Of a stretch of 64,000 bases of DNA, positions 35,644 through 47,220 are shown in pieces (the stretch's first letter is position 1; each line of letters starts with the position of its first letter). The notes under the pieces were generated by a model. The model worked only from the letters and a program-made list of their open reading frames with translations, was not told where the DNA came from and did no database searches. The translations under genes were made by a program, and so were the position numbers. Source of the stretch: Opitutia bacterium (GTDB lineage Bacteria; Verrucomicrobiota; Verrucomicrobiia; Opitutales; Seribacteraceae); the NCBI GenBank assembly GCA_002716045.1, contig PAZC01000046.1, positions 74,297-138,296 on the forward strand, in the 5' to 3' direction.

Positions 35644-35696
35644 CTGCCTAGCGGTCTAGGGTTGAGTTTGATCGCTTTCGCGATTTCTTGTTGGTT

Positions 35697-37997
35697 ATGG
35701 AAATCGAGGAAACCGAGGCACCTGACCAAGCCTCCGCGGAAAATCCAGAGGAATTGGGCAATTTGCGAAGGAGCGAACCCTCTTCTTCCGCGGCGGGTCT
35801 GCCTGCAGTCACCCATTCATTGAAGCATGCGTTGCGCGAATCAAGCATTGGACGGGTAGCTGCCTCCTGGTTCTCATTAAACCAAAAAGATGGCTTCGAT
35901 TGCCCCAGCTGCGCTTGGCCTGATCCCGATGATCACCGGGCCAAGACTGAATTTTGCGAAAACGGTGCCAAGGCAGTTGCCTCTGAGGCAAGCAACAAGA
36001 AGCGTTGCGACGCCGCTTTCTTTGCAAAGTGGCCGGTGAAGGAATTGGCTGCCCAGTCGGACCATTGGCACGAGTTGCAAGGACGCCTGACCGAACCTGT
36101 TGTTCTGCGAAAGGGAGCCTCTCATTACGAACCGATATCCTGGGAGAATGCCTTTCGCATGGTGGGCCATGAGCTCAACGAGCTCGATTCTCCGGATGAA
36201 GCGATTTTCTATACCTCCGGGCGAACCGTCAACGAAGCCGCTTTCCTCTATCAACTCTTCGCTCGTCTCTATGGCACGAATAATTTGCCCGATTGCTCTA
36301 ATATGTGTCACGAGTCCAGCGGAGCTGCGCTCAAGCAAACCATTGGCATCGGAAAAGGGACAGTGTCTCTGGATGATTTCGAAAAGGCAGAAGCCATCTT
36401 CATCTTTGGCCAGAATCCGGGGACCAATCATCCGCGTATGCTCAGTTCCTTGCAGACGGCCAAGCGCAATGGGTGTCGAATCGTAGCGGTTAATCCGCTC
36501 AAGGAGGCGGGCCTCCTTGGCTTTGCTCATCCGCAGGAAGTGAAGGGATTGCTCGGTGTCTCCACTTCTCTTGCCTCCCAGTACCTGCAGGTCCGTCTCA
36601 ATGGTGACATGGCACTGCTAAAGGGGATGCAAAAGGCTATTTTGGAAGAAGAGGACAATGACCCAGGCCAAGTCCTCGATCATGCGTTTATCGATGAAAG
36701 AACCACAGGTTTCGAGGAATGGAAAGCAGCACTCGCTACACTCAGTTGGGAGCAGGTGGAGGAACAGAGCGGGCTTGCTCAAAAGGAAATTTTGAAAGCA
36801 GCCCACACCTACATTAAAGCTGATTCCGTGATTTCTTGCTGGGCCATGGGGCTTACGCAACACAAGACTGCCGTTGCTACCATCCAGGAAATTGTCAATT
36901 TGCATCTTCTGGGAGGCAACATTGGAAAGCCCGGTGCCGGATTGTGTCCTGTTCGGGGACACAGCAACGTTCAGGGTGACCGTACCATGGGCATTGCAAC
37001 CAATATGCCACCTGCTTTTTTGGACGCCTTGGGACAGGAATTCAACTTCCATCCTCCCCGTGAAACCGGATTAGACACGGTTGCCTCCATCGCAGCGATG
37101 CGCGATGGCTTGGCAAAGGTGTTTATCGCCTTGGGCGGCAATTTCCTTTCGGCCACTCCTGACGTGGATACAGTGGCTGCCGGCATTCGTCGTTGCCGCC
37201 TGAGTGTTCAAGTATCAACCAAACTAAACCGAAGTCATCTGGTGACTGCTGAGCAAGCCCTCATTTTGCCCTGCTTGGGTCGCAGCGAAGTCGATCGTGA
37301 TCAATTTGTGACGGTTGAAAATTCCATGGGCATCGTGCATGCCTCGCGTGGTAAGTTATCTCCCGTTTCAGATAGCTTGCTCAGTGAGCCTGCCATTGTC
37401 AGCGGTGTCGCAAAGGCCACCTTGGGCAACGATTCGGAAATACCCTGGGATGATTTTGCGAAGGATTATTCTCTTGTCCGCAAACGCATAGAGAAGGTTG
37501 TTCCTGGTTTCGATGATTTCGAGCGCAAAGTACTTCAGCCAGGCGGCTTCTACTTGCCTAATCCGGCCAAGCAGCGGGTCTTTGCCGACGCCGAAGGGAA
37601 AGCGCCTTTCAGTGTTCACCCATTGGAGCCCATAGATTTGACCGAGGGTCAACTACTCCTGATGACCATTCGTAGTCACGATCAGTTCAATACAACTATT
37701 TATGGCATGGATGACCGTTATCGTGGAATTCGTAACGAGCGCCGCGTTATATTCCTTAACCGCGAGGACATGAAGGAAAGGAATCTTTCGGCCGAGCAAC
37801 CGGTAAACATTACCAGCCATTGGCAAGGAGAGATGCGCCATGCCCGGCTTTTTCTTGCCATACCCTATGATATCCCTCGCAGATGCGCCGCCGCCTATTT
37901 CCCCGAAACCAATGTGTTGGTGCCTTTAGATAGCACGGCTCGGGTCAGTAAAACACCCACCTCAAAGTCCATCGTGGTGACGGTGGAAGCGGCTTGA
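35697..37997 (+). CDS. FdhF/YdeP-family molybdopterin oxidoreductase
   Basis: Cytoplasmic bis-MGD enzyme related to formate dehydrogenase alpha subunits; E. coli YdeP is linked to acid resistance. The 766-residue length and motifs fit: an N-terminal FDCPSCAWPDPD cysteine pair, YTSGRTVNEAAFLYQLFAR, CHESSGAALKQTIG, FIFGQNPGTNHPRML, GKPGAGLCPVRGHSNVQGDR, and the C-terminal molybdopterin-dinucleotide domain (MTIRSHDQFNTTIYG). No full N-terminal 4Fe-4S CxxC motif set is present. ATG 35697 is preferred over the TTG three codons before. The upstream fdhD supports a sulfurated cofactor; the physiological substrate is unknown. Confidence 0.9.
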   Translation: MEIEETEAPDQASAENPEELGNLRRSEPSSSAAGLPAVTHSLKHALRESSIGRVAASWFSLNQKDGFDCPSCAWPDPDDHRAKTEFCENGAKAVASEASNKKRCDAAFFAKWPVKELAAQSDHWHELQGRLTEPVVLRKGASHYEPISWENAFRMVGHELNELDSPDEAIFYTSGRTVNEAAFLYQLFARLYGTNNLPDCSNMCHESSGAALKQTIGIGKGTVSLDDFEKAEAIFIFGQNPGTNHPRMLSSLQTAKRNGCRIVAVNPLKEAGLLGFAHPQEVKGLLGVSTSLASQYLQVRLNGDMALLKGMQKAILEEEDNDPGQVLDHAFIDERTTGFEEWKAALATLSWEQVEEQSGLAQKEILKAAHTYIKADSVISCWAMGLTQHKTAVATIQEIVNLHLLGGNIGKPGAGLCPVRGHSNVQGDRTMGIATNMPPAFLDALGQEFNFHPPRETGLDTVASIAAMRDGLAKVFIALGGNFLSATPDVDTVAAGIRRCRLSVQVSTKLNRSHLVTAEQALILPCLGRSEVDRDQFVTVENSMGIVHASRGKLSPVSDSLLSEPAIVSGVAKATLGNDSEIPWDDFAKDYSLVRKRIEKVVPGFDDFERKVLQPGGFYLPNPAKQRVFADAEGKAPFSVHPLEPIDLTEGQLLLMTIRSHDQFNTTIYGMDDRYRGIRNERRVIFLNREDMKERNLSAEQPVNITSHWQGEMRHARLFLAIPYDIPRRCAAAYFPETNVLVPLDSTARVSKTPTSKSIVVTVEAA

Positions 37998-38019
37998 AAT
38001 TCAAAAGGAATTGATCGGC

Positions 38020-39063
38020 GTGGGGAAAACAGACTCAATACTGCTTTGGTTGCGATGCATCTGCATCGGCGTTGCGATCATTATGGTGGTTGGTGGAATC
38101 ACGCGTTTGACCGATTCGGGTTTGTCGATGGTGGATTGGCGACCAGTTATGGGCATTTTGCCTCCTCTAACCGATGCCGATTGGGAAGAAGTTTTCGCCA
38201 GTTACCAGCAGATTCCTCAAGGCAAGTACACAGGCGTTGCCACGACTATGGAGGAGTTCAAGAGTATCTTCTTCTGGGAGTATTTGCACCGTATTCTAGG
38301 CCGTGTGGTTGGCTTGATATGCTTGCTTCCCTACCTTTGGTTGCTGTGGAAGAATAAATTAAGCAAGGCATTGAAGATCAAGGGACTATGCTTGGTTTTA
38401 CTGGTTGTTCTGCAAGGCCTGATTGGTTGGTACATGGTAAAGAGTGGCGTGGACCCGGGGACTACCTTGGTCAAGGTGAGTCACTATCGTTTGGCCCTTC
38501 ACCTTGGGTTGGCGTTCGCTTTGTTTGGTTTGGCCTGGTGGATGATCCTCGACCTGCGCCACGGAAAGGAGCGTGGCGGTGGCCTTCGCAAACTGCGCTT
38601 CTGGGCCATGATTTTGTTAGGCGTGTTTTGCCTGCAGGTGATCTACGGAGCCTTCGTCTCCGGGTTGAAGGCAGGCTACGTCTTTAACACTTTCCCCCGA
38701 ATGGGCGTTGAATGGGTTCCCGCATTTCTCTTTCAGCAGGAACCATTTTGGAGGAATCTCGTCGAGGATCCGCTTACCATGCAGTTCATTCATCGCTGGA
38801 TAGGCACTTGCCTCACCATAGCCACGGTTGGGTTGGGGGCGTTTGCCCTTCGCTCCGGTCTTCTTGATGCAACCCAGCATCGCAATGCAATCTGCTTGTT
38901 GGTCTTGGTGTTGTTTCAGTTTGCCCTTGGTGTATCGACTCTTCTTTTTCTGTCCGAAGTAAGGATTGTCTTACCCGCCATTCACCAACTGGTCGCCTTG
39001 TTTCTCTTCTCGGCTTTTCTTTCGTTCATTCATTCCTTGGGGAAATCGACCCTCGAGCAGTGA
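38020..39063 (+). CDS. ctaA: Heme A synthase (CtaA/Cox15)
   Basis: Oxidises the C8 methyl of heme O to a formyl group for aa3-type cytochrome oxidases. The 347 residues span about eight membrane segments with conserved features GGITRLTDSGLSMVDWRPVM, EYLHRILGRVVG (His ligand), SHYRLALHLGLAF, FIHRWIGTCL and PAIHQLVALFLF. The Cox15-like DSGLSMVDW motif is clear. GTG 38020 is chosen because AAGGAA (38005-38010) lies 9 bases upstream; the in-frame TTG 38011 would touch that site. No cytochrome oxidase or ctaB gene is in the window. Confidence 0.92.
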   Translation: MGKTDSILLWLRCICIGVAIIMVVGGITRLTDSGLSMVDWRPVMGILPPLTDADWEEVFASYQQIPQGKYTGVATTMEEFKSIFFWEYLHRILGRVVGLICLLPYLWLLWKNKLSKALKIKGLCLVLLVVLQGLIGWYMVKSGVDPGTTLVKVSHYRLALHLGLAFALFGLAWWMILDLRHGKERGGGLRKLRFWAMILLGVFCLQVIYGAFVSGLKAGYVFNTFPRMGVEWVPAFLFQQEPFWRNLVEDPLTMQFIHRWIGTCLTIATVGLGAFALRSGLLDATQHRNAICLLVLVLFQFALGVSTLLFLSEVRIVLPAIHQLVALFLFSAFLSFIHSLGKSTLEQ

Positions 39064-39158: not shown

Positions 39159-39659
39159 TTGGGTTATCGAATCGCCATATTCCTTCTGCTATTCGCGACT
39201 TGGGCGGTATTCTCGGCCAAGTTTGATGCTTTTCACTTGGGCTTGGGTGCTTTGTCGTCTCTGATCGTCACTTGGTTGTCGCAAGACTTGCTCTTTCGGG
39301 ACCGGGATAAGGGATTGTCTGCTCGTTTGTCAGAGGCGATGCGTTTCATCGGTTACGCTTTCTGGTTGTTGTGGGAAATCGTCCTGTCCAACGTACATGT
39401 TTTTAAATTGGCCATGACGAAGCAGGGAGAAGAAGAAATGTCCCCGCGGGTAGTGAAGCTCAAGACCAAGCTGAAGTCTGATTTCGCCAAGTTTGTCTAT
39501 GCCAATTCCATTACCCTGACACCAGGCACGATCACCATACAGATCAATGGAAACGAATATTTGGTTCATGCCATCAGCGAGATGGTGGAGAAGGATTTGA
39601 AGTCAGGTGAAGTGGAACGCCGCGTGGCCGCGGTGTTCGAACCGGAGGCGATCTCGTGA
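39159..39659 (+). CDS. mrpE: Mrp/Mnh antiporter subunit E
   Basis: Membrane subunit of the multi-protein monovalent cation/proton antiporter, equivalent to MbhA. The 166 residues have an N-terminal hydrophobic pair (IFLLLFATWAVFS; ALSSLIVTWLS), a segment FIGYAFWLLWEIVLSN and the family signature YANSITLTPGTITIQINGNEYLVHA. TTG 39159 is the start, supported by AAGGA (39147-39151) 7 bases upstream; the nearby ATG 39128 is in another frame. It is the first gene of a ten-gene operon, after a 95-base gap. Confidence 0.92.
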   Translation: MGYRIAIFLLLFATWAVFSAKFDAFHLGLGALSSLIVTWLSQDLLFRDRDKGLSARLSEAMRFIGYAFWLLWEIVLSNVHVFKLAMTKQGEEEMSPRVVKLKTKLKSDFAKFVYANSITLTPGTITIQINGNEYLVHAISEMVEKDLKSGEVERRVAAVFEPEAIS

Positions 39660-39979
39660 CGATCGAAATCTTCGCCTTGGCTGTCGGCGTTGGCTTGTTC
39701 GTCTTGATGTTGCCTGCCTTGTATCGCGTGGCGGTGGGCCCTACCAGTTACGATCGTTTGGTAGCAGTCAATGTCATAGGCACCAAGACGGCTGTATTGT
39801 TGGTGGTCATAGGCACCTTGTTCGATCGACTGGACATGTTCGTCGACTTTGCCCTCGCCTATGCCTTGCTCAATTTCGTGGGTTCCCTTGCGGTGGCCCG
39901 TTACTTGAATCGCACTCGACCACAGGCTGCAAAAAGGCCTCGGCGGCGGGGACCACGAAAGAAAGCAGCCAAGGCATGA
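39656..39979 (+). CDS. mrpF: Mrp/Mnh antiporter subunit F
   Basis: Small three-helix membrane subunit (MbhB equivalent), 107 residues. The signature GPTSYDRLVAVNVIGTKT, followed by DMFVDFALAYALLNFVGSLA, is diagnostic. The last ~20 residues are a basic tail (RPQAAKRPRRRGPRKKAAKA), longer than usual, probably on the cytoplasmic side. The start is GTG 39656, overlapping the mrpE stop, and its stop overlaps the mrpG start, so the three are translationally coupled. Confidence 0.92.
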   Translation: MTIEIFALAVGVGLFVLMLPALYRVAVGPTSYDRLVAVNVIGTKTAVLLVVIGTLFDRLDMFVDFALAYALLNFVGSLAVARYLNRTRPQAAKRPRRRGPRKKAAKA

Positions 39980-40386
39980 TGGATTTTCTTTTCTTGGCTG
40001 AATCCTCTGGCGCCCTTACACAAGCGGAGCTTTCTCCCCTAGACCTTTGTGGGATGATCTTGGCGTGCGTCGGGCTCCTCTTTTTTCTTGGTGCGGCGGT
40101 GGGACTTTATCGTTTCCCAGATTTTTATACCCGCATGCATGCAGCCGGTAAAGGTGACACCTTGTCCAGTCTCCTGATCCTCGTGGGGTTCGCCCTCATC
40201 ACATTCGATGATTTTTCTGTGGTGGGTTACCTTCTTGTAGTCAAGGTGGTAGCCATCGCGCTATTCATAATGCTGACTAGCCCGACTAGCACACATGCCC
40301 TCATGCGCGCCGGATTCGAGGATGGCGTCGAGCCCGTGACCAAGGGCAAAAAACCAAAGAAAAAGGGAGGCGGGAAAAAGAAATGA
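39976..40386 (+). CDS. mrpG: Mrp/Mnh antiporter subunit G
   Basis: Three-helix membrane subunit (MbhC equivalent) of 136 residues. The signature is GLYRFPDFYTRMHAAGKGDTL and the following helix SSLLILVGFALITF. It begins with two Met codons at 39976, overlapping the mrpF stop in ATGA; the frame is open much farther upstream, but that is a shadow of mrpE/mrpF. A Lys-rich tail (KGKKPKKKGGGKKK) ends the protein, resembling the basic tails of MrpF and MrpC here. Confidence 0.92.
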   Translation: MMDFLFLAESSGALTQAELSPLDLCGMILACVGLLFFLGAAVGLYRFPDFYTRMHAAGKGDTLSSLLILVGFALITFDDFSVVGYLLVVKVVAIALFIMLTSPTSTHALMRAGFEDGVEPVTKGKKPKKKGGGKKK

Positions 40387-40634
40387 CCGGGCTTGAGATA
40401 TTTAATGTGTTCATCCTCGTTTTCCTTGTCGTGGCGGCGTTGATTTCCTTGCGTGTTAAGGATCTTCTGTCCGCTTCCATGGTTTTTGGCATTTACAGCT
40501 TTTTGATCTGTTTGTTGTGGGCCGAAATGGGGGCCGTCGACGTGGCTTTCACCGAGGCGGCCGTTGGGGCCGGCGTTAGCGCCGTCTTTCTCGTAGCAAC
40601 GGTCTTTAACGTCAAAAGGAGGTCATCCGACTGA
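40383..40634 (+). CDS. MbhD-like/DUF4040 antiporter subunit
   Basis: An 83-residue protein with about three membrane helices, equivalent to the small domain that in classical MrpA lies between the large antiporter part and the MrpB-like end, and to MbhD of membrane-bound hydrogenase. The signature is LLSASMVFGIYSFLICLLWAEM followed by AVDVAFTEAAVGAGVSAVFL. Its presence as a separate gene, with no full-length MrpA, is the archaeal Mbh-like arrangement. The start ATG 40383 overlaps mrpG, and its stop shares a base with the next start (TGATG). Confidence 0.85.
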   Translation: MTGLEIFNVFILVFLVVAALISLRVKDLLSASMVFGIYSFLICLLWAEMGAVDVAFTEAAVGAGVSAVFLVATVFNVKRRSSD

Positions 40635-41392
40635 TGTCGAGGATTGCTGCAGTGGTGACTGTGCTGACGGGGATTCTTCTCCTGTACGCAGCGACTGATT
40701 TCCCGAAGTGGGGTGACCCTCTTTCTCCGGCAAGCGATTCAAACGTCTCCAAGCATTTCGTGGCCGAAACGGGCGTCGATACGGAGGTTCCCAACATGGT
40801 CACCGCTGTGTTGGCGGATTATCGGGGTTTCGACACGATGTTCGAAACGGTGGTGGTCTTCATCGCCGGCATTGCAATTATCGGCATCCTTAAGATAACT
40901 GGAGAGGCTGCTGGCAATTCGCCTCGCAAAAGGGTAGATGAAGTGGCAGCCGAACCCGACCTCATCGTGACCAACACGGTGCGCTTGTTGGTCCCGGTCA
41001 TCCAATTGTTTGCCTTTTACGTCTTGGCTCATGGTCACGTTAGTCCTGGCGGAGGGTTCCAAGGTGGCGTAATTATGGGAGCAAGCTTCATCTTGGTGGC
41101 ATTGGCCTGGGACTTGCCCAAGGCAATGGATCGATTATCCGTCGACCGTGCCATGACCTTGGCCGGAGTGGGCATTTTGATCTATGCGGGCATTGGCTTG
41201 CTGTCGATGTTTCTTGGCGGTGAATTCCTTGATTACGCCGAATTGGCCAGCATTTTGCCGGTTTCCCGTGAAATGGCGCGGTACCACGCCATGTTGGGTA
41301 TCGAGATCGGGGTAGCTTTCACTGTGACCACCGTGATGTTTGCAATCTACGCTAACCTTTCCACCAGGGGGTGCCTCGAGAAAGGTCTCTAG
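40634..41392 (+). CDS. mrpB: MbhE-MrpB fusion antiporter subunit
   Basis: The 252 residues unite two pieces: an MbhE-like part (FVAETGVDTEVPNMVTAVLA, DYRGFDTMFETVVVFIAGIA; ~40-90) and a MnhB/MbhF domain (VRLLVPVIQLFAFYVLAHGH, SPGGGFQGGVIMGASFIL; ~115-250), with about seven membrane helices in total. In Bacillus Mrp the first piece is the MrpA C-terminal end. The SPGGGFQGG motif is the most reliable family marker. It overlaps the DUF4040 gene by one base, and mrpC follows after 21 bases. Confidence 0.9.
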   Translation: MSRIAAVVTVLTGILLLYAATDFPKWGDPLSPASDSNVSKHFVAETGVDTEVPNMVTAVLADYRGFDTMFETVVVFIAGIAIIGILKITGEAAGNSPRKRVDEVAAEPDLIVTNTVRLLVPVIQLFAFYVLAHGHVSPGGGFQGGVIMGASFILVALAWDLPKAMDRLSVDRAMTLAGVGILIYAGIGLLSMFLGGEFLDYAELASILPVSREMARYHAMLGIEIGVAFTVTTVMFAIYANLSTRGCLEKGL

Positions 41393-41413
41393 GGATCAGG
41401 CGAAATTAATCTT

Positions 41414-42007
41414 ATGTTTGGAGAAGACGGCTTGTTGCGCGAACTGTTGGTCGAGCGGTTCAATTATTGCATTTACGTTGTTCTTTTGCTCATCGGACTT
41501 TACGCGATGATCGCCAAGAAAAACCTGATCAAGAAGCTAATCGGCATGTCTATTTTTCAGACTGCCATTATCTTGTTCTATGTTTCGGTGGGCGTGAAGG
41601 ACGGAGCCACTATACCGATTTACAAAGCGGAGCACGATCCCCATGGCCATCATGCTGTTGTGGATGCGCATCATCAGCAAACTGAGCAAAATGCGACCTC
41701 GGCGGAGGATGCAAATGCCACGCTAGACCCGTCCGCGGACACCGACCAGAAAGAGCATCACCATGGACCAGTGGCGCTGACGGACGAGCAAACGCGGCAA
41801 TATGCCAATCCTTTGCCACATGTTCTCATGCTGACCGCCATCGTAGTTGGGGTAGCCACCTTGGGAGTTGCCCTTGCCCTTGTTCAACGCATTTACCGAG
41901 CCTATGGCACCATCGAGGAAGACGAGGTCATGCAATGCCTCCTTGCAGAAGGCGACGAAGCCAAGGCATCAAGTAAAAAGGCCAAGCCAAGAAAGGCCAA
42001 GTCATAG
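41414..42007 (+). CDS. mrpC: Antiporter subunit C (NuoK-like) with His-rich insertion
   Basis: NuoK/MrpC/MbhG-type three-helix subunit: helix 1 NYCIYVVLLLIGLYAMI, helix 2 KKLIGMSIFQTAIILFYVSV, helix 3 HVLMLTAIVVGVATLGVALAL. Between helices 2 and 3, residues ~72-118 form a polar insertion rich in histidine (His74, 77, 79, 80, 86, 87, 115-117) and acidic residues, where family members usually have a short loop with an IP-DP/LPHALVLTAIV-type motif. A Lys-rich tail raises the length to 197 residues (about 110-120 is usual). The insertion could bind zinc, nickel or protons; this is inference. Confidence 0.9.
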   Translation: MFGEDGLLRELLVERFNYCIYVVLLLIGLYAMIAKKNLIKKLIGMSIFQTAIILFYVSVGVKDGATIPIYKAEHDPHGHHAVVDAHHQQTEQNATSAEDANATLDPSADTDQKEHHHGPVALTDEQTRQYANPLPHVLMLTAIVVGVATLGVALALVQRIYRAYGTIEEDEVMQCLLAEGDEAKASSKKAKPRKAKS

Positions 42008-42011
42008 CCCG

Positions 42012-43571
42012 ATGAGCGAGAACTCCATCGCCTTCATTTTCGCTTGCCCCTTGTTCGGGGCTGTCATCTGTACCTTTTTGGGGCGAAGCAAGAGGCATCT
42101 TTGTCATCCTGTCGCGGTGGCTTCTTTGGCTGGTGCCTTGTGGGGCGGCATAGAGACTTTGTTTCGTGCCGTAGCAAGCGAGACCAACGAAGTATCCTAT
42201 TTGTTGGGAGGTTGGACTCTCGATGCTTTTCCACGGGGCGTTGGAATCGAATTCCGGGCTGATTTGCTTGGCACCCTCATTATGTTAGTGGTGGTGGGTG
42301 TTGCCTTCTTGGTAGCCCTCTATTCGAAATTGCCCGTTTCCGAGGAAACACCGGAAAAGGAAGGTCCATTTTTTACCCTCTTCCTGTTGCAGGTAACCGG
42401 TCTTTCAGGAATCTGTCTAACCGGTGATGCATTCAATCTTTACGTATTGATCGAGGTGACTGCTCTCACTGGCTACGGACTCATTGCAATGGGTTCTGCG
42501 AGAGCCGCCACGGCCACCTTCAATTACGTCATTCTTGGAACTATCGGGGCTTCTTTCTATCTGCTTGGGGTCGGTTATGTCTACATCAAGACAGGCACTC
42601 TCAACATGGTTGGCATTCAGGAGGTGATTGAGGCCCGGAATTTGGCTGATTCCGCTACCATGCAAGTAGCTTTCGTGTTCATCGGTTTGGGTATCCTGAT
42701 CAAGATGGCCTTCTTTCCCTTTCACGCTTGGTTGCCCAACGCATATGCCTATGCCCCCACTGCGACTTCCTGTCTTTTGGCACCTCTTGTCACCAAGGTC
42801 ATGATTTACGCCATGATTCGCATGACATTGACCGTGTTCGGGGTCGAGTTTTCCTTCGACAATACTGTTTGGACGCAACTTTTGCCATGGCTTGTCGTGA
42901 TCGCCATCGTCTGCGCCGCGACTATGGCTTTGGCCCAGCGAGACCTGAAGAAGATGCTTACTTACCTCATCGTGGCGGAGGTCGGCTACATGGTGGGCGG
43001 TGTCTGGTTGCATAATTACTATGGCTTGATCGGCTCCATCTTCCATGTCATCAGCGATGCCTGCATGACCCTCTGCCTGTTCCTTGGAGCCGGCATTATA
43101 CTTCGAAAGGTCGGAACCACCCATTTCGATGGAATGAAAGGACTTTTCCGACGCATGCCACTCACCATGACGGGTTTCTTCGTGGGTGGTTTCTCGATCA
43201 TCGGTTTGCCTCCGACCTGCGGGTTCTTCAGCAAATGGTACCTGATCACCGGAGGCATGATGGCGAACCGCTGGGAATATATGGTGGCTCTCATGTTCTC
43301 CACCATGGTGATGGTGGTGCTTTTCTTTCGTCTCATTGAGCGAATTCATTTGGCTGTGACTGAGAGCGGCGAGGAATTTGGCCATGGCCACGGTGACCTC
43401 GACTTACCTGAAAACGAAACCTGTTTTGACGAAGCCCCGCTCTCCATGCTCGTTCCACTTTTGCTTTCTGCAGCAGTGGTCATCGTGGTGGGCGTTTACA
43501 ACCAGGATGTCGTGAACCTCATAGAGGACTTCCTCGAGCCCTTCAATTTGCCAAAGGGAACTGATCACTGA
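42012..43571 (+). CDS. mrpD: Antiporter subunit D (NuoN/MrpD-like)
   Basis: Proton/cation-translocating subunit with about 14 membrane helices. ATG 42012, 4 bases after mrpC, gives 519 residues; the frame is open upstream inside mrpC. Seen: the conserved Glu helix NLYVLIEVTALTGYGLIAMG, the Lys helix FIGLGILIKMAFFPFHAWLP, the PTATSCLLAPLVTKV segment with a second Lys, and GGFSIIGLPPTCGFFSKWYL. A short His/Gly segment (EFGHGHGDLDLPENE) lies in a late loop. MSENSIAF marks the N terminus. Confidence 0.92.
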   Translation: MSENSIAFIFACPLFGAVICTFLGRSKRHLCHPVAVASLAGALWGGIETLFRAVASETNEVSYLLGGWTLDAFPRGVGIEFRADLLGTLIMLVVVGVAFLVALYSKLPVSEETPEKEGPFFTLFLLQVTGLSGICLTGDAFNLYVLIEVTALTGYGLIAMGSARAATATFNYVILGTIGASFYLLGVGYVYIKTGTLNMVGIQEVIEARNLADSATMQVAFVFIGLGILIKMAFFPFHAWLPNAYAYAPTATSCLLAPLVTKVMIYAMIRMTLTVFGVEFSFDNTVWTQLLPWLVVIAIVCAATMALAQRDLKKMLTYLIVAEVGYMVGGVWLHNYYGLIGSIFHVISDACMTLCLFLGAGIILRKVGTTHFDGMKGLFRRMPLTMTGFFVGGFSIIGLPPTCGFFSKWYLITGGMMANRWEYMVALMFSTMVMVVLFFRLIERIHLAVTESGEEFGHGHGDLDLPENETCFDEAPLSMLVPLLLSAAVVIVVGVYNQDVVNLIEDFLEPFNLPKGTDH

Positions 43572-43572
43572 C

Positions 43573-45066
43573 ATGGAACTTGCACCTACAATTGTCCATG
43601 ACGCCCGCCCGCTTATAGCGTTGCTGGCTCCTGCCATCGCGGTCGTGGGCATAGTTTGGTCGGGAGAGAAGAGGCCCAACCTGCGCGAGGCATTCACTTT
43701 CCTCGCGGGTATCGTCCAAGCCGGCGTGGTCCTTTCCATGATCCCGCTAGTGCTCGCTGGAAGCGTCATTGAGTGCCATCTCTGGCAGATGTTCACCAAT
43801 GTGCCCTTTCTTCTACGGGTGGACGGCTTCGGTCTCACTTTCGCTGCGGTTGCGTCAGTTCTTTGGATTGCTACCTCTCTTTATGCGATCGGCTATATGC
43901 GTGGGCTTCACGAGCATGCCCAGACAAGATTTTACTCTTTTTTCGCGATTTCTCTCACAGCCACCATTGGAGTGGCCTTTTCGGCAAACTTGCTGACCAT
44001 ATATTTCTTTTACGAAATGCTCTCGGTATCGACCTTTCCCTTGGTCACCCATATGCAGAACAAGGAGGCTCGCACCGGTGGACGGACCTATCTGTCCTAT
44101 CTGCTCTTCACCTCGCTTTGCCTCCTCTTGCCCGCTTTGAGTTGGTGTTACGTTTGGTTGGATGGTGGCCAAGGGGCAATGGATTTCCTCTCGGGCAATT
44201 CCATGGCCGAGCAATTTTCCGACACCACCCAACTTGTCTTGCTCCTGCTTTTCACCTTTGGCTTCGCCAAGGCCGGTCTTATGCCCGTGCACTCTTGGTT
44301 GCCTAACGCCATGGTGGCCCCCACTCCGGTCTCTGCCTTGTTGCACGCGGTGGCTGTGGTGAAGGTGGGCGTTTTTTGCGTTATCCGTGTGTACTCCGAC
44401 ATTTTCGGCATCAACCTGTTGCAGGGACTCAATGGCGAGGAAGTCATGATCTGGCTTGCCTGCGCCACCATTTTGATCGCGTCCTTCATTGCTCTTTCAC
44501 AGGACAACCTAAAACGCCGCCTCGCCTTTTCCACCATCGGTCAACTCGGTTACGTCGTGCTTGGGGCTACCTTGGCGACTAAGCAAGGCATGAGTGGGGC
44601 GGTCTTGCATATTGCAATGCATGCTTGTGGGAAGATAACGCTCTTCTTTTGCGCCGGTGCCATCTTCGTGGCTTCCGGAAAGAAATATGTCAGCCAGTTG
44701 CGCGGTCTTGGTCGCAAGATGCCTTTCACCATGGGGGCTTTTCTCATCGGTTCGCTGAGCGTGATCGGTTTGCCACCACTTGGTGGCTTCATTAGCAAAT
44801 GGTACTTGGCTCTCGGTGCCCTTGATCGCGATTGTTTTTGGGTTGTGGTTGTCCTGCTTGTCAGTTCCCTGCTAAACGTATTTTACCTTTTGCCCGTTGC
44901 GGTGACGGCTTTCTTCCGGGCCGAAGACGAGGACGGGGAAGAAGGCGATGGCATGAAGGAAGCCCCTTGGCAATGCGTCGTTCCACTCACCTGCACCGCC
45001 CTCGGCTGTTTTGGCCTCTTCTTTTTCTCAGACTTCCTGTTGCAACTAGCGGGACTGGGTCATTAA
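43573..45066 (+). CDS. Second antiporter-like subunit (NuoM/MrpD-like)
   Basis: The 497 residues are a separate member of the proton-conducting transporter family: IYFFYEMLSVSTFPLVTHMQ (Glu helix), LFTFGFAKAGLMPVHSWLPN (Lys helix), SALLHAVAVVKVGVFCVIRV, AFSTIGQLGYVVLGA and GSLSVIGLPPLGGFISKWYL. All residues expected for ion translocation appear present. It begins one base after the mrpD stop. An acidic loop (AEDEDGEEGDGMKE) precedes the last helix. A paralogue following MrpD is unusual for textbook Mrp operons and suggests a larger complex. Confidence 0.9.
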   Translation: MELAPTIVHDARPLIALLAPAIAVVGIVWSGEKRPNLREAFTFLAGIVQAGVVLSMIPLVLAGSVIECHLWQMFTNVPFLLRVDGFGLTFAAVASVLWIATSLYAIGYMRGLHEHAQTRFYSFFAISLTATIGVAFSANLLTIYFFYEMLSVSTFPLVTHMQNKEARTGGRTYLSYLLFTSLCLLLPALSWCYVWLDGGQGAMDFLSGNSMAEQFSDTTQLVLLLLFTFGFAKAGLMPVHSWLPNAMVAPTPVSALLHAVAVVKVGVFCVIRVYSDIFGINLLQGLNGEEVMIWLACATILIASFIALSQDNLKRRLAFSTIGQLGYVVLGATLATKQGMSGAVLHIAMHACGKITLFFCAGAIFVASGKKYVSQLRGLGRKMPFTMGAFLIGSLSVIGLPPLGGFISKWYLALGALDRDCFWVVVVLLVSSLLNVFYLLPVAVTAFFRAEDEDGEEGDGMKEAPWQCVVPLTCTALGCFGLFFFSDFLLQLAGLGH

Positions 45067-45070
45067 TGAC

Positions 45071-45406
45071 ATGAACAAGAAAACTGATACTAGGGATAAC
45101 GAGCCCGAAACCGAGGAAACCAAACGTTGGTTGGATGATTCTGCCAATGTCAGTAAGTTGATCCGTTGGTTTTACTGGTCCTGCGCCCTCATGATTTTGA
45201 TTGATTTGATCTTCTCCCTTGGTTGGCACAAACACGCAGTCTTTGCCGACGGGAGTTCGTTGGAAGTTCTGGAGGTTTGGCCAGGCTTCTATGGCTTCTA
45301 CGGTTTCGTTGCCTGTTCGATCCTTGTCTTTATCGCCAAGGCGCTTCGAAGTTTTCAAGGGAAACCTTTTTTAATGAGAGACGAGGATTATTGGGACAAG
45401 TCATGA
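45071..45406 (+). CDS. Small two-helix membrane protein of the antiporter operon
   Basis: The 111 residues have an acidic N terminus (TRDNEPETEETKRWLDD), two membrane helices (WFYWSCALMILIDLIFSLGW; GFYGFYGFVACSILVFIAKA) and a C-terminal LMRDEDYWDKS motif. The WPGFYGFYGFVACS segment and MRDEDY-D ending recall a small protein I associate with extended Mrp-like clusters in other phyla, where it has no defined role. It starts 4 bases after the previous gene, and its stop overlaps the next start (ATGA 45403-45406). An accessory or assembly subunit is the simplest idea. Confidence 0.75.
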   Translation: MNKKTDTRDNEPETEETKRWLDDSANVSKLIRWFYWSCALMILIDLIFSLGWHKHAVFADGSSLEVLEVWPGFYGFYGFVACSILVFIAKALRSFQGKPFLMRDEDYWDKS

Positions 45407-47220
45407 TCTTAGCGGCCTCCAGCGATCCAGTGACTCATCCAGCCTTCGCCCTACTTTTTTTTGGCTTGGCTGCAGCCGTTTTGCGTGGGCGATTCGCAGC
45501 CGTCGCGATGGTTATAGGTCCAGTCTTTGGCTTTTGGTTGGTCAGTGACTTGGAAATTGGATCCAGCTCCGCCTTGTCCTTGTTCGGATATGAGATGGTC
45601 TTCGCCCACGTGGATAAGCAATCCGTTCTATTCGGGTATCTTTTTCACCTGGCTGCCCTGATCGTTGGAATCTACTCCTTTCATCTTCGGGACCCTTGGC
45701 AACTGTCTATGGGCATGTTCTATGCCGCCTGTGCCGTGGGCGTTGCATTTGCGGGTGACCTGCTGTCGCTTTTCCTCTGGTGGGAAGGCTTGGCCTTGAC
45801 CTCGGTTTTTCAAATTTGGGCCAGAAAAACGGAGCGGTCCGAACAAGCCGGCTTTCGCTATCTTTTCTTTCATATTCTGTCAGGCCTCCTGCTTTTGGCT
45901 GGTATCATTCTGCGATATCACGAGATAGGCGGCGATGATGCCTTTGCCATGGTATCGTTGACCATGGCTTTCGAGTCCGGTGACCTTTATGCCCAATTAA
46001 TTCTCTTTGCGATTGGCATTAAATGTGCCTTCCCCTTCTTTCACGTTTGGCTGACCGATGGCTATCCCGAGGCAACCCCTACCGGAGCAGTTTTTCTTTC
46101 CGCCTTCACTTCCAAGGCGGCGATTTGCGTCTTGGCTCGCCTGTTCGCAGGCACTGATTTCCTCATCACCGTTGGAGCCGTCATGGCCATGTTCCCCATT
46201 TTCTATGCAGTCATAGAGAATGATCTTCGGCGGGTTTTGGGATATAGCATGATCAACCAGATTGGTTTCATGGTGGTTGGAATCGGAATAGGCACCCCAT
46301 TGGCTGTTGATGGGGCCCTTGCGCATGCTTTCAATGACGTTCTGTTCAAGGGCTTGCTTTTCATGGCTATGGGAGCCGTTCTCTACCGTACCGGTGAGAT
46401 GCGCGGTTCAGAACTAGGAGGACTTTATCGCACCATGCCTTGGACCACGGGCTTGTGCATCGTTGGAGCGGCTTCCATTTCCGCGTTTCCTTTGTTCAGT
46501 GGCTTTGTCAGCAAGTCTATTATCATGGCGGAGGCTGCACGAGGAAGTCACCACGTGGTCTGGTTGTGCCTTTTATTTGCCTCGGCCGGAGTTTTTCACC
46601 ACGCGGGAATCAAGATTCCCTTCTTCGCTTTTTTTGCTCATGATTCTGGTCTTCGTCCCAAGGAGGCTCCTCTCAACATGCTCATCGCAATGGGGATCGC
46701 TGCCTTCATGTGCCTGTTCATTGGTTGCAACCCCGAATGGCTCTACGCCATGCTTCCCGGTCAAGCAGCAGGCTATCACCCCTACGATGCCACCCATGTC
46801 ATCACGCAAACCGAAATTCTTCTTTTTTCTGCCTTGGCCTTTACCTTGCTTAATCTCTGGAAGCTATATCCTCCCGAACTTAAGTCGGTCAACCTCGACG
46901 TTGACTGGCTCTATCGCAAGGGAGGCAAAGCCTTCTGTGGCGTGATGGCTCTTTTCTGGAATACCCTCAATGATTTGGCTCACTTGTTCTTCGTGAAACG
47001 CATTGCAGCTCAAATCGGAGATTTCACGGCTCGCGGTCCAACTGTTGTTCTCCGCAAGGCAGCTCGCCCTCTCCGCTCCCTTGGTTTTTTCCCAGACAAG
47101 ACTTTGGACGAAGCCAAGGATGCACTTGAGAATCGCGCCCAGCTCGGCGTCCATCCGGTAGGCCTTACCGCTGTCTTTGGCATCATCTTCCTCTTTGCGT
47201 TGGTGGCCTTGGTTTTTTGA
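45403..47220 (+). CDS. Third antiporter-like subunit (NuoL/MrpA/D-like)
   Basis: The 605 residues form a large proton-conducting transporter subunit: GDLLSLFLWWEGLALTSVFQ (Glu helix), LILFAIGIKCAFPFFHVWLT (Lys helix), FTSKAAICVLARLFAG, YSMINQIGFMVVGIGIG, and ASISAFPLFSGFVSKSIIM. Beyond the core is a ~100-residue C-terminal region (NLDVDWLYRKGGKAFCGVMA, then LRKAARPLRSLGFFPD) ending in one more helix, recalling the lateral-helix extension of NuoL but not proven. ATG 45403 overlaps the small membrane protein; the frame upstream is a shadow. It is the last gene of the operon. Confidence 0.88.
   Translation: MILAASSDPVTHPAFALLFFGLAAAVLRGRFAAVAMVIGPVFGFWLVSDLEIGSSSALSLFGYEMVFAHVDKQSVLFGYLFHLAALIVGIYSFHLRDPWQLSMGMFYAACAVGVAFAGDLLSLFLWWEGLALTSVFQIWARKTERSEQAGFRYLFFHILSGLLLLAGIILRYHEIGGDDAFAMVSLTMAFESGDLYAQLILFAIGIKCAFPFFHVWLTDGYPEATPTGAVFLSAFTSKAAICVLARLFAGTDFLITVGAVMAMFPIFYAVIENDLRRVLGYSMINQIGFMVVGIGIGTPLAVDGALAHAFNDVLFKGLLFMAMGAVLYRTGEMRGSELGGLYRTMPWTTGLCIVGAASISAFPLFSGFVSKSIIMAEAARGSHHVVWLCLLFASAGVFHHAGIKIPFFAFFAHDSGLRPKEAPLNMLIAMGIAAFMCLFIGCNPEWLYAMLPGQAAGYHPYDATHVITQTEILLFSALAFTLLNLWKLYPPELKSVNLDVDWLYRKGGKAFCGVMALFWNTLNDLAHLFFVKRIAAQIGDFTARGPTVVLRKAARPLRSLGFFPDKTLDEAKDALENRAQLGVHPVGLTAVFGIIFLFALVALVF

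What the first reader, a model, noticed from the sequence alone, without database searches (positions are those of the whole stretch)
39159..47220. Ten-gene Mrp/Mbh-like antiporter with three translocating subunits and no full-length MrpA
The sequence shows E, F, G, a separate DUF4040/MbhD-like gene, an MbhE-MrpB fusion, C and D, in the order known from archaeal membrane-bound hydrogenase modules. They are followed by a second and a third NuoM/L-type subunit and a 111-residue membrane protein, with start-stop overlaps or short gaps throughout. No hydrogenase or dehydrogenase subunits accompany it. Three antiporter-like subunits in one complex would resemble the pump array of complex I, but without an electron-transfer arm.
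Basis: partly seen in the sequence, partly recalled or inferred. Interest (0 to 1): 0.6.

Follow-up and report, generated by a model that had tools for sequence, protein, structure and literature searches.

The report
Ten-gene Mrp antiporter, split-NuoL module
This is a real, widely conserved ten-gene ion antiporter of the known "group 3 Mrp" kind, and its last three genes are a portable cassette that other bacteria use in place of one pump subunit of respiratory complex I.

Summary
Ten same-strand genes (39159-47220) encode MrpE, F, G, MbhD, an MbhE-MrpB fusion, MrpC, three antiporter-like subunits (D1, D2, D3) and a small two-helix protein S between D2 and D3. The complete order recurs in 52 of 80 named loci from about eleven phyla, so it is one ancient unit. 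The host is an Opitutia (Verrucomicrobiota) MAG; its genome holds no MrpA and no [NiFe] hydrogenase.

It fits group 3 Mrp, which is defined by lacking mrpA, so "no MrpA" is expected. What I did not find described: D2-S-D3 is a portable cassette. The same three genes sit inside complex I operons in place of NuoL, in rhizobial "green complex I" (the two MrpD-like subunits there are published) and in ten other Verrucomicrobiota. D2 carries the NuoL/MrpA-specific TM8 histidine but no lateral helix; D3 carries the lateral helix but not that histidine. D3's TM7 lysine, thought essential for pumping, is present in 79 of 82 antiporter copies plus the window, but is asparagine in 16 of 16 complex I copies.

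Most likely: an electrogenic Na+(K+)/H+ antiporter with three potential proton channels. Activity, stoichiometry and S's role are inferred.

The parts
39159..39659 (+). MrpE/MbhA-like subunit (166 aa, TTG start)
   Evidence: PF01899 E 3e-32
39656..39979 (+). MrpF/MbhB-like subunit (107 aa)
   Evidence: PF04066 E 1.5e-15
39976..40386 (+). MrpG/MbhC-like subunit (136 aa)
   Evidence: PF03334 E 7e-25; over the TIGR01300 cut-off
40383..40634 (+). MbhD (DUF4040), equivalent of part of the MrpA C-terminus (83 aa)
   Evidence: PF13244 E 4.5e-17; aligns with MbsD/MbhD of PDB 6u8y/6cfw including the glutamate of the DVA(x)(T/A)EA motif; only copy in the genome
40634..41392 (+). MbhE-MrpB fusion (252 aa), the same fusion as MbsE
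   Evidence: PF20501 + PF04039; PDB 6u8y_E aligned over residues 2-199
41414..42007 (+). MrpC/NuoK-like subunit (197 aa) with a His/acid-rich insert between its two conserved blocks
   Evidence: PF00420 E 5e-21; matches 6u8y_G and 6cfw_G in two blocks; insert shared by verrucomicrobial relatives
42012..43571 (+). D1: MrpD/MbsH/MbhH-type antiporter-like subunit (519 aa)
   Evidence: PF00361; best PDB matches MbsH, MbhH, MrpD; TM5 Glu, TM7, TM8, TM12 Lys present
43573..45066 (+). D2: antiporter-like subunit (497 aa) with the NuoL/MrpA-specific TM8 histidine and no lateral helix
   Evidence: PF00361; His in 82 of 82 readable family members; TM5 Glu, TM7, TM8, TM12 Lys
45071..45406 (+). S: small two-helix membrane protein (111 aa), found between D2 and D3
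   Evidence: 91 homologues fetched; lies between D2 and D3 in essentially all 85 loci with both; AF2 helices 24-51 and 73-97, pLDDT 74.9; no PDB relative
45403..47220 (+). D3: lateral-helix-bearing antiporter-like subunit (605 aa) with a 58-residue C-terminal helix and a terminal TM helix
   Evidence: Over the NCBIfam NF009310 cut-off (660 vs 564 bits); AF2 pLDDT 87.7, helix 502-559, final helix 585-604; Foldseek best to MrpA and NuoL chains

Best explanation
The operon encodes one ten-subunit group 3 Mrp-type electrogenic Na+(or K+)/H+ antiporter. E, F, G, the MrpB domain, MbhD and MbhE form the cation path. MrpC links this to a row of three antiporter-like subunits, D1-D2-D3. D3 is the distal one; its long amphipathic helix runs back along D2 towards D1, as the NuoL or MrpA helix does. 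D2 and D3 together, with S at or near their junction, replace the single MrpA-N/NuoL: D2 keeps the NuoL/MrpA-type channel signature, D3 keeps the lateral helix and adds a channel. Protons entering through the row drive cation export; a third channel would permit a higher H+/cation ratio, hence export against a steeper gradient. Shown here: gene content, order, conservation, key residues, predicted D3 fold, and the shared cassette in complex I. Inferred: assembly into one complex, subunit order in the membrane, transport activity, ion, direction, stoichiometry, and the place of S.
For: Full E-F-G-(MbhD)-(MbhE/B)-C-D1-D2-S-D3 order in 52 of 80 named loci, about eleven phyla; overlapping or tightly spaced genes. 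The same nearest pairs recur in the D1, D2 and D3 subtrees (window+SP241, Alteromonadales+Shewanella, Kangiella+Desulfobulbaceae), implying co-inheritance. TM5 Glu and TM7/TM8/TM12 Lys are intact in D1, D2 and D3 of the window; TM5 Glu and TM7 Lys are MrpA/MrpD residues needed for antiport (PMC5703873). The MbhD glutamate motif is present. D3 model with lateral helix and terminal TM, matching MrpA and NuoL chains. Published green complex I: two MrpD-like subunits replace NuoL and MrpD2 carries the HL helix (PMC9040806); the same genes with S lie between NuoK and NuoM in Ensifer and relatives. No redox partner is conserved beside the cluster and there is no hydrogenase in the genome.
Against: No functional data exist for this cluster. 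P. furiosus has a stand-alone mrpEFGBB'CD without D2-S-D3 (PMC8415708), so E-D1 could be complete alone. In G071 (L138) the two parts are separated by a P-type ATPase gene on the other strand. D1 of this lineage has Thr at the position of NuoL K342, which is Lys in MrpA, MrpD and MbhH. Deep placement of D1, D2 and D3 is unresolved (AU p 0.13-0.41). The complex as a whole was not modelled.
Confidence: 0.66

Rival explanations
1. Two complexes share one operon: a seven-gene P. furiosus-like Mrp (E to D1) and a separate D2-S-D3 module that works alone or joins another complex in trans.
For: P. furiosus mrpEFGBB'CD stands alone (PMC8415708). D2-S-D3 moves as a unit into nuo operons. In G071 the two halves are separated.
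Against: Contiguous in all 52 complete loci; matching pairs in the D1, D2 and D3 trees; the D1 to D2 gap is 1 bp. In complex I the cassette replaces a built-in subunit, so it is made to join a membrane arm.
Confidence: 0.15
2. Only two subunits conduct; D3 is mainly a structural holder of the lateral helix, and the extra mass is a spacer.
For: D3 has Asn instead of the TM7 lysine in all 16 complex I copies examined and in three deep Mrp copies.
Against: The window's D3 and 79 of 82 Mrp-context D3 keep the TM7 lysine as well as TM5 Glu, TM8 Lys and TM12 Lys. On the tree this needs one change.
Confidence: 0.13
3. A membrane arm that docks a redox module encoded elsewhere, as in MBS, MBH or complex I.
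For: Order and the MbhE-MrpB fusion match MBS. In one Marinimicrobia contig (L054) the whole cluster sits inside a green complex I operon between NuoM and NuoN.
Against: No NiFe hydrogenase in the genome. Both 49-kDa homologues lie in nuo clusters with their own L, M, N subunits. No redox gene recurs beside the 80 loci.
Confidence: 0.06

Closest known systems
Group 3 Mrp antiporters, e.g. Pyrococcus furiosus mrpEFGBB'CD (PMC8415708)
   Same: No mrpA; order E-F-G-B domains-C-D; MbhD/MbhE-type domains; stand-alone, no redox genes
   Different: Here MbhD is separate and MbhE is fused to MrpB; D2, S and D3 are added
Group 3 Mrp of Ca. Nitrospira alkalitolerans (PMC7784846)
   Same: Two extra NuoM/L-like genes directly after mrpD were noted there
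   Different: The passages read give no subunit analysis and mention no small gene; its sequence was not compared
MBS membrane arm of P. furiosus (PDB 6u8y)
   Same: MbhE-MrpB fusion, MbhD, two antiporter-like subunits of which MbsH' has the extra C-terminal helices; D3 falls beside MbsH' in the full tree (support 92, long branch)
   Different: No redox arm; D2 and S have no MBS counterpart found here
[quoted passage not shown]
   Same: The D2-S-D3 cassette in the same order (rhizobia, tested here); MrpD2 carries the HL helix
   Different: There it is part of NDH-1 in place of NuoL; D3 has Asn instead of Lys in TM7 in all five rhizobial copies read (Manganitrophaceae not read)
2M complex I (cited in PMC9040806)
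   Same: Principle of adding an antiporter-like subunit to the row
   Different: There a second NuoM is added; different subunit family

Membership tests
Group 3 Mrp (CPA3) | No mrpA gene; only mrpD, sometimes several copies | tested here: met
   Three PF00361 genes, none with the MrpA C-terminal fusion; no MrpA in the genome
Group 3 Mrp (CPA3) | E, F, G, B, C and D subunits or domains all present | tested here: met
Group 3 Mrp (CPA3) | Monovalent cation/H+ antiport activity | not testable with these tools
   Needs a transport assay
Group 1/2 Mrp | MrpA of about 800 aa or more with N-terminal antiporter and C-terminal MbhD/MbhE domains in one chain | tested here: not met
   MbhD and MbhE-MrpB are separate genes; no large MrpA
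MBH / MBS | Redox module (NiFe-type large subunit, MbhM/NuoH-type) in the cluster | tested here: not met
   None in the cluster; no PF00374 in the genome
Complex I / green complex I | NuoB, C, D, H, I with the membrane subunits | tested here: not met
   No nuo genes in the cluster or beside its nearest relatives; only the D2-S-D3 cassette is shared
D2-S-D3 cassette (MrpD pair of green complex I) | D2, S and D3 homologous and in the same order | tested here: met
   One clade each for D2 and D3 over both contexts; S alignable
NCBIfam NF009310 / PRK12668 Na(+)/H(+) antiporter subunit D | Score over the curated cut-off | tested here: met
   D3 660.1 vs 564 bits

The most novel reading that the evidence does not exclude
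D2-S-D3 is a split NuoL/MrpA: the channel signature in D2, the lateral helix in D3, S as a dedicated joint. The cassette passed once between a stand-alone Mrp antiporter and complex I, and the TM7 lysine of D3 differs by context: present in nearly all antiporters, asparagine in complex I. If so, the fourth 'pump' proposed for green complex I may not conduct, whereas the Mrp form has three working channels.
Probability: 0.35. Interest if true: 0.65.

Novelty: new variant of a known kind. Interest (0 to 1): 0.46.

Why it matters
How many antiporter-like subunits a complex uses, and whether each moves an ion, is an open question for Mrp and complex I. Here the same cassette is found in both kinds of complex, with a natural change at the residue thought essential for pumping. 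That gives a direct test of the proposal that green complex I pumps an extra proton, and a natural series of 1 (P. furiosus Mrp), 2 (Mrp) and 3 (this cluster) antiporter-like subunits for measuring H+/cation ratios.

Tried and rejected
Whether D2 or D3 is simply MrpA-N or NuoL: not resolved. The full tree keeps both outside a NuoL+MrpA clade (98), a smaller tree joins D2 to it (89), and AU tests reject none of the three groupings tested. A conserved soluble or redox partner beside the cluster: none among the 80 loci beyond common signalling and housekeeping genes. Relatives of S: none in Pfam, NCBIfam or PDB. RNA elements near the cluster: none. Degli Esposti 2016 and Chadwick 2018 are not held, so what they report is known only through papers citing them. 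The claim that all of D1's conserved charges are intact was dropped: the NuoL K342 position is Thr in this lineage.
Full report
Observation. Pfam names nine of them: MrpE, MrpF, MrpG, MbhD, an MbhE-MrpB fusion, MrpC and three antiporter-like subunits, here called D1 (519 aa), D2 (497 aa) and D3 (605 aa). The 111-aa protein between D2 and D3, here called S, has no Pfam or NCBIfam match. The window lies in a 3.9-Mb genome in 60 contigs, 94% complete with 6% contamination; the closest named relative is an Opitutia MAG of Verrucomicrobiota (L111, 88% for D3).

It is one conserved unit. Of 80 named loci found with D3, 52 hold the complete order E-F-G-(MbhD)-(MbhE/B)-C-D1-D2-S-D3, from Pseudomonadota, Verrucomicrobiota, Latescibacterota, Gemmatimonadota, Thermodesulfobacteriota, Planctomycetota, Eiseniibacteriota, Bdellovibrionota, Fidelibacterota, Calditrichota and Acidobacteriota. 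The other 28 show the 3' part of the order; nearly all are cut by a contig or locus end, and one (L126) keeps only S-D3. In many, MbhD and MbhE appear not to be separate in the same way as here. S lies between D2 and D3 in essentially all of 85 loci that have both (three differ only in the chosen start codon, one scored below threshold).

No partner arm. The genome has no NiFe hydrogenase. Its two 49-kDa homologues belong to two nuo clusters, and all its other PF00361 proteins are subunits of those clusters. There is no MrpA and only one MbhD. Genes beside the cluster in other genomes show no conserved redox partner.

What is known. Group 3 Mrp is defined by the lack of mrpA and one or several mrpD (PMC8415708; see also PMC5703873). 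P. furiosus has a stand-alone mrpEFGBB'CD, and its MBS has the same MbhE-MrpB fusion. Two further NuoM/L-like genes after mrpD were noted in a group 3 cluster of Ca. Nitrospira alkalitolerans (PMC7784846). The window is therefore a member of a known group with a larger architecture, not a new class.

The cassette. D2-S-D3 also occurs inside complex I operons: NuoJ-NuoK-[D2-S-D3]-NuoM-NuoN in Ensifer, Pararhizobium, Rhizobium and Phyllobacterium plasmids, in S. meliloti pSymA and in ten other Verrucomicrobiota genomes (NuoA-B-C-D-H/I-J-K-[D2-S-D3]-M-N). No NuoL was seen in those operons. The two MrpD-like subunits of rhizobial green complex I are published, as is the lateral helix of MrpD2 (PMC9040806). 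I found no mention of S or of the stand-alone Mrp form in what I could read. In 289 genomes sampled from the phylum, 13 have D3 above the NCBIfam cut-off: ten in complex I, two in the contiguous Mrp cluster (window, G224) and one in the split form (G071). A Marinimicrobia contig (L054) holds the whole ten-gene cluster between NuoM and NuoN of a green complex I operon.

Trees. D1, D2 and D3 are each one clade (99-100). D2 and D3 from complex I sit inside those clades. On a D2+D3 tree the context changes once. Deep relations to NuoL, MrpA and MrpD are not resolved. The same nearest pairs recur in the three subtrees, which supports co-inheritance.

Residues. TM5 Glu, TM7 Lys, TM8 Lys and TM12 Lys are present in the window's D1, D2 and D3 and nearly invariant in each family. 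The TM8 His that separates NuoL/MrpA from MrpD/NuoM/NuoN (H254/H221 in PMC4938563) is in 82 of 82 readable D2, none of D1, and none of D3. D3, not D2, has the NuoL-like C-terminus: AlphaFold2 (pLDDT 87.7, pTM 0.83) gives one helix 502-559, about 87 A long at 1.5 A per residue, then a terminal helix 585-604 (confidence there is lower, 49-83). Foldseek puts MrpA first and includes E. coli NuoL at TM 0.75. All D3 relatives inspected share this C-terminal plan. So the two hallmarks of NuoL/MrpA-N are divided between D2 and D3.

The TM7 position. D3 has Lys here in the window and in 79 of 82 Mrp-context relatives, but Asn in all 16 complex I copies read: ten Verrucomicrobiota, five rhizobia, and the complex I D3 in L054, whose Mrp D3 on the same contig has Lys. 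The three Mrp exceptions (G224, G071, Calditrichota) are the deepest Mrp branches, and the tree needs one change. The direction is unknown because the tree is unrooted; NuoL, MrpA and MbsH' have Lys.

S. A family of about 74-139 aa, with helices predicted at 24-51 and 73-97 (pLDDT 74.9, pTM 0.45). Conserved positions are an acidic residue in helix 1, an HxH or similar motif, an acid before helix 2, F-x-x-x-Y/F-G-F-x-x-C in helix 2, and a C-terminal E-D-Y-Y/W. Its fixed place suggests a joint between D2 and D3; this is inference.

Mechanism, most likely. A stand-alone cation/H+ antiporter in which protons entering through D1, D2 and D3 drive cation export through the MbhD/MbhE-F-G-B region, following the published Mrp model (PMC7419157; competing Mrp models exist). 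The number of working channels, the ion and the ratio are not shown.

Caveats. The paper library is open-access only, and Degli Esposti 2016 and Chadwick 2018 could not be read. MAG contamination matters for the statements about the two nuo clusters. The 80 named loci are the nearest relatives of D3, not a random sample.

Noticed in passing
G000 contig C9, L011:1-17979: A complex I cluster NuoA-B-C-D-I-H-J-K-L-M-M-N with two NuoM genes, i.e. of the 2M type with four antiporter-like subunits. The MAG has 6% contamination, so the contig could be foreign.
   Followed up: partly
G000 contig C15, L012:5187-8412: In the second complex I cluster nuoM and nuoN are each interrupted by one in-frame TAA, while NuoL, H, I and others are open: decay or sequence error.
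   Followed up: no
window 41630-41800 (in MrpC): MrpC carries a His- and acid-rich insert of about 50 residues between its two conserved blocks; length and sequence vary but it recurs in verrucomicrobial, and in short form in calditrichotal, relatives. Possibly a cation-binding loop.
   Followed up: partly
L054:1-12488: In a Marinimicrobia contig the complete ten-gene Mrp cluster sits between NuoM and NuoN of a green complex I operon; the complex I D3 has TM7 Asn and the Mrp D3 has TM7 Lys.
   Followed up: yes
window 42012-43571 (D1): At the NuoL K342-equivalent position D1 has Thr instead of Lys, in the window and 12 relatives (Verrucomicrobiota plus the Calditrichota row); the NuoL H338 position is Asp in 13 rows.
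   Followed up: partly
L138:4764-7604: A P-type cation ATPase gene on the opposite strand separates D1 from D2-S-D3 in Verrucomicrobiota genome G071.
   Followed up: partly
window 35688-39063: A molybdopterin oxidoreductase gene (769 aa) and a COX15/CtaA gene lie 13 bp apart directly upstream, 95 bp before mrpE, on the same strand.
   Followed up: no
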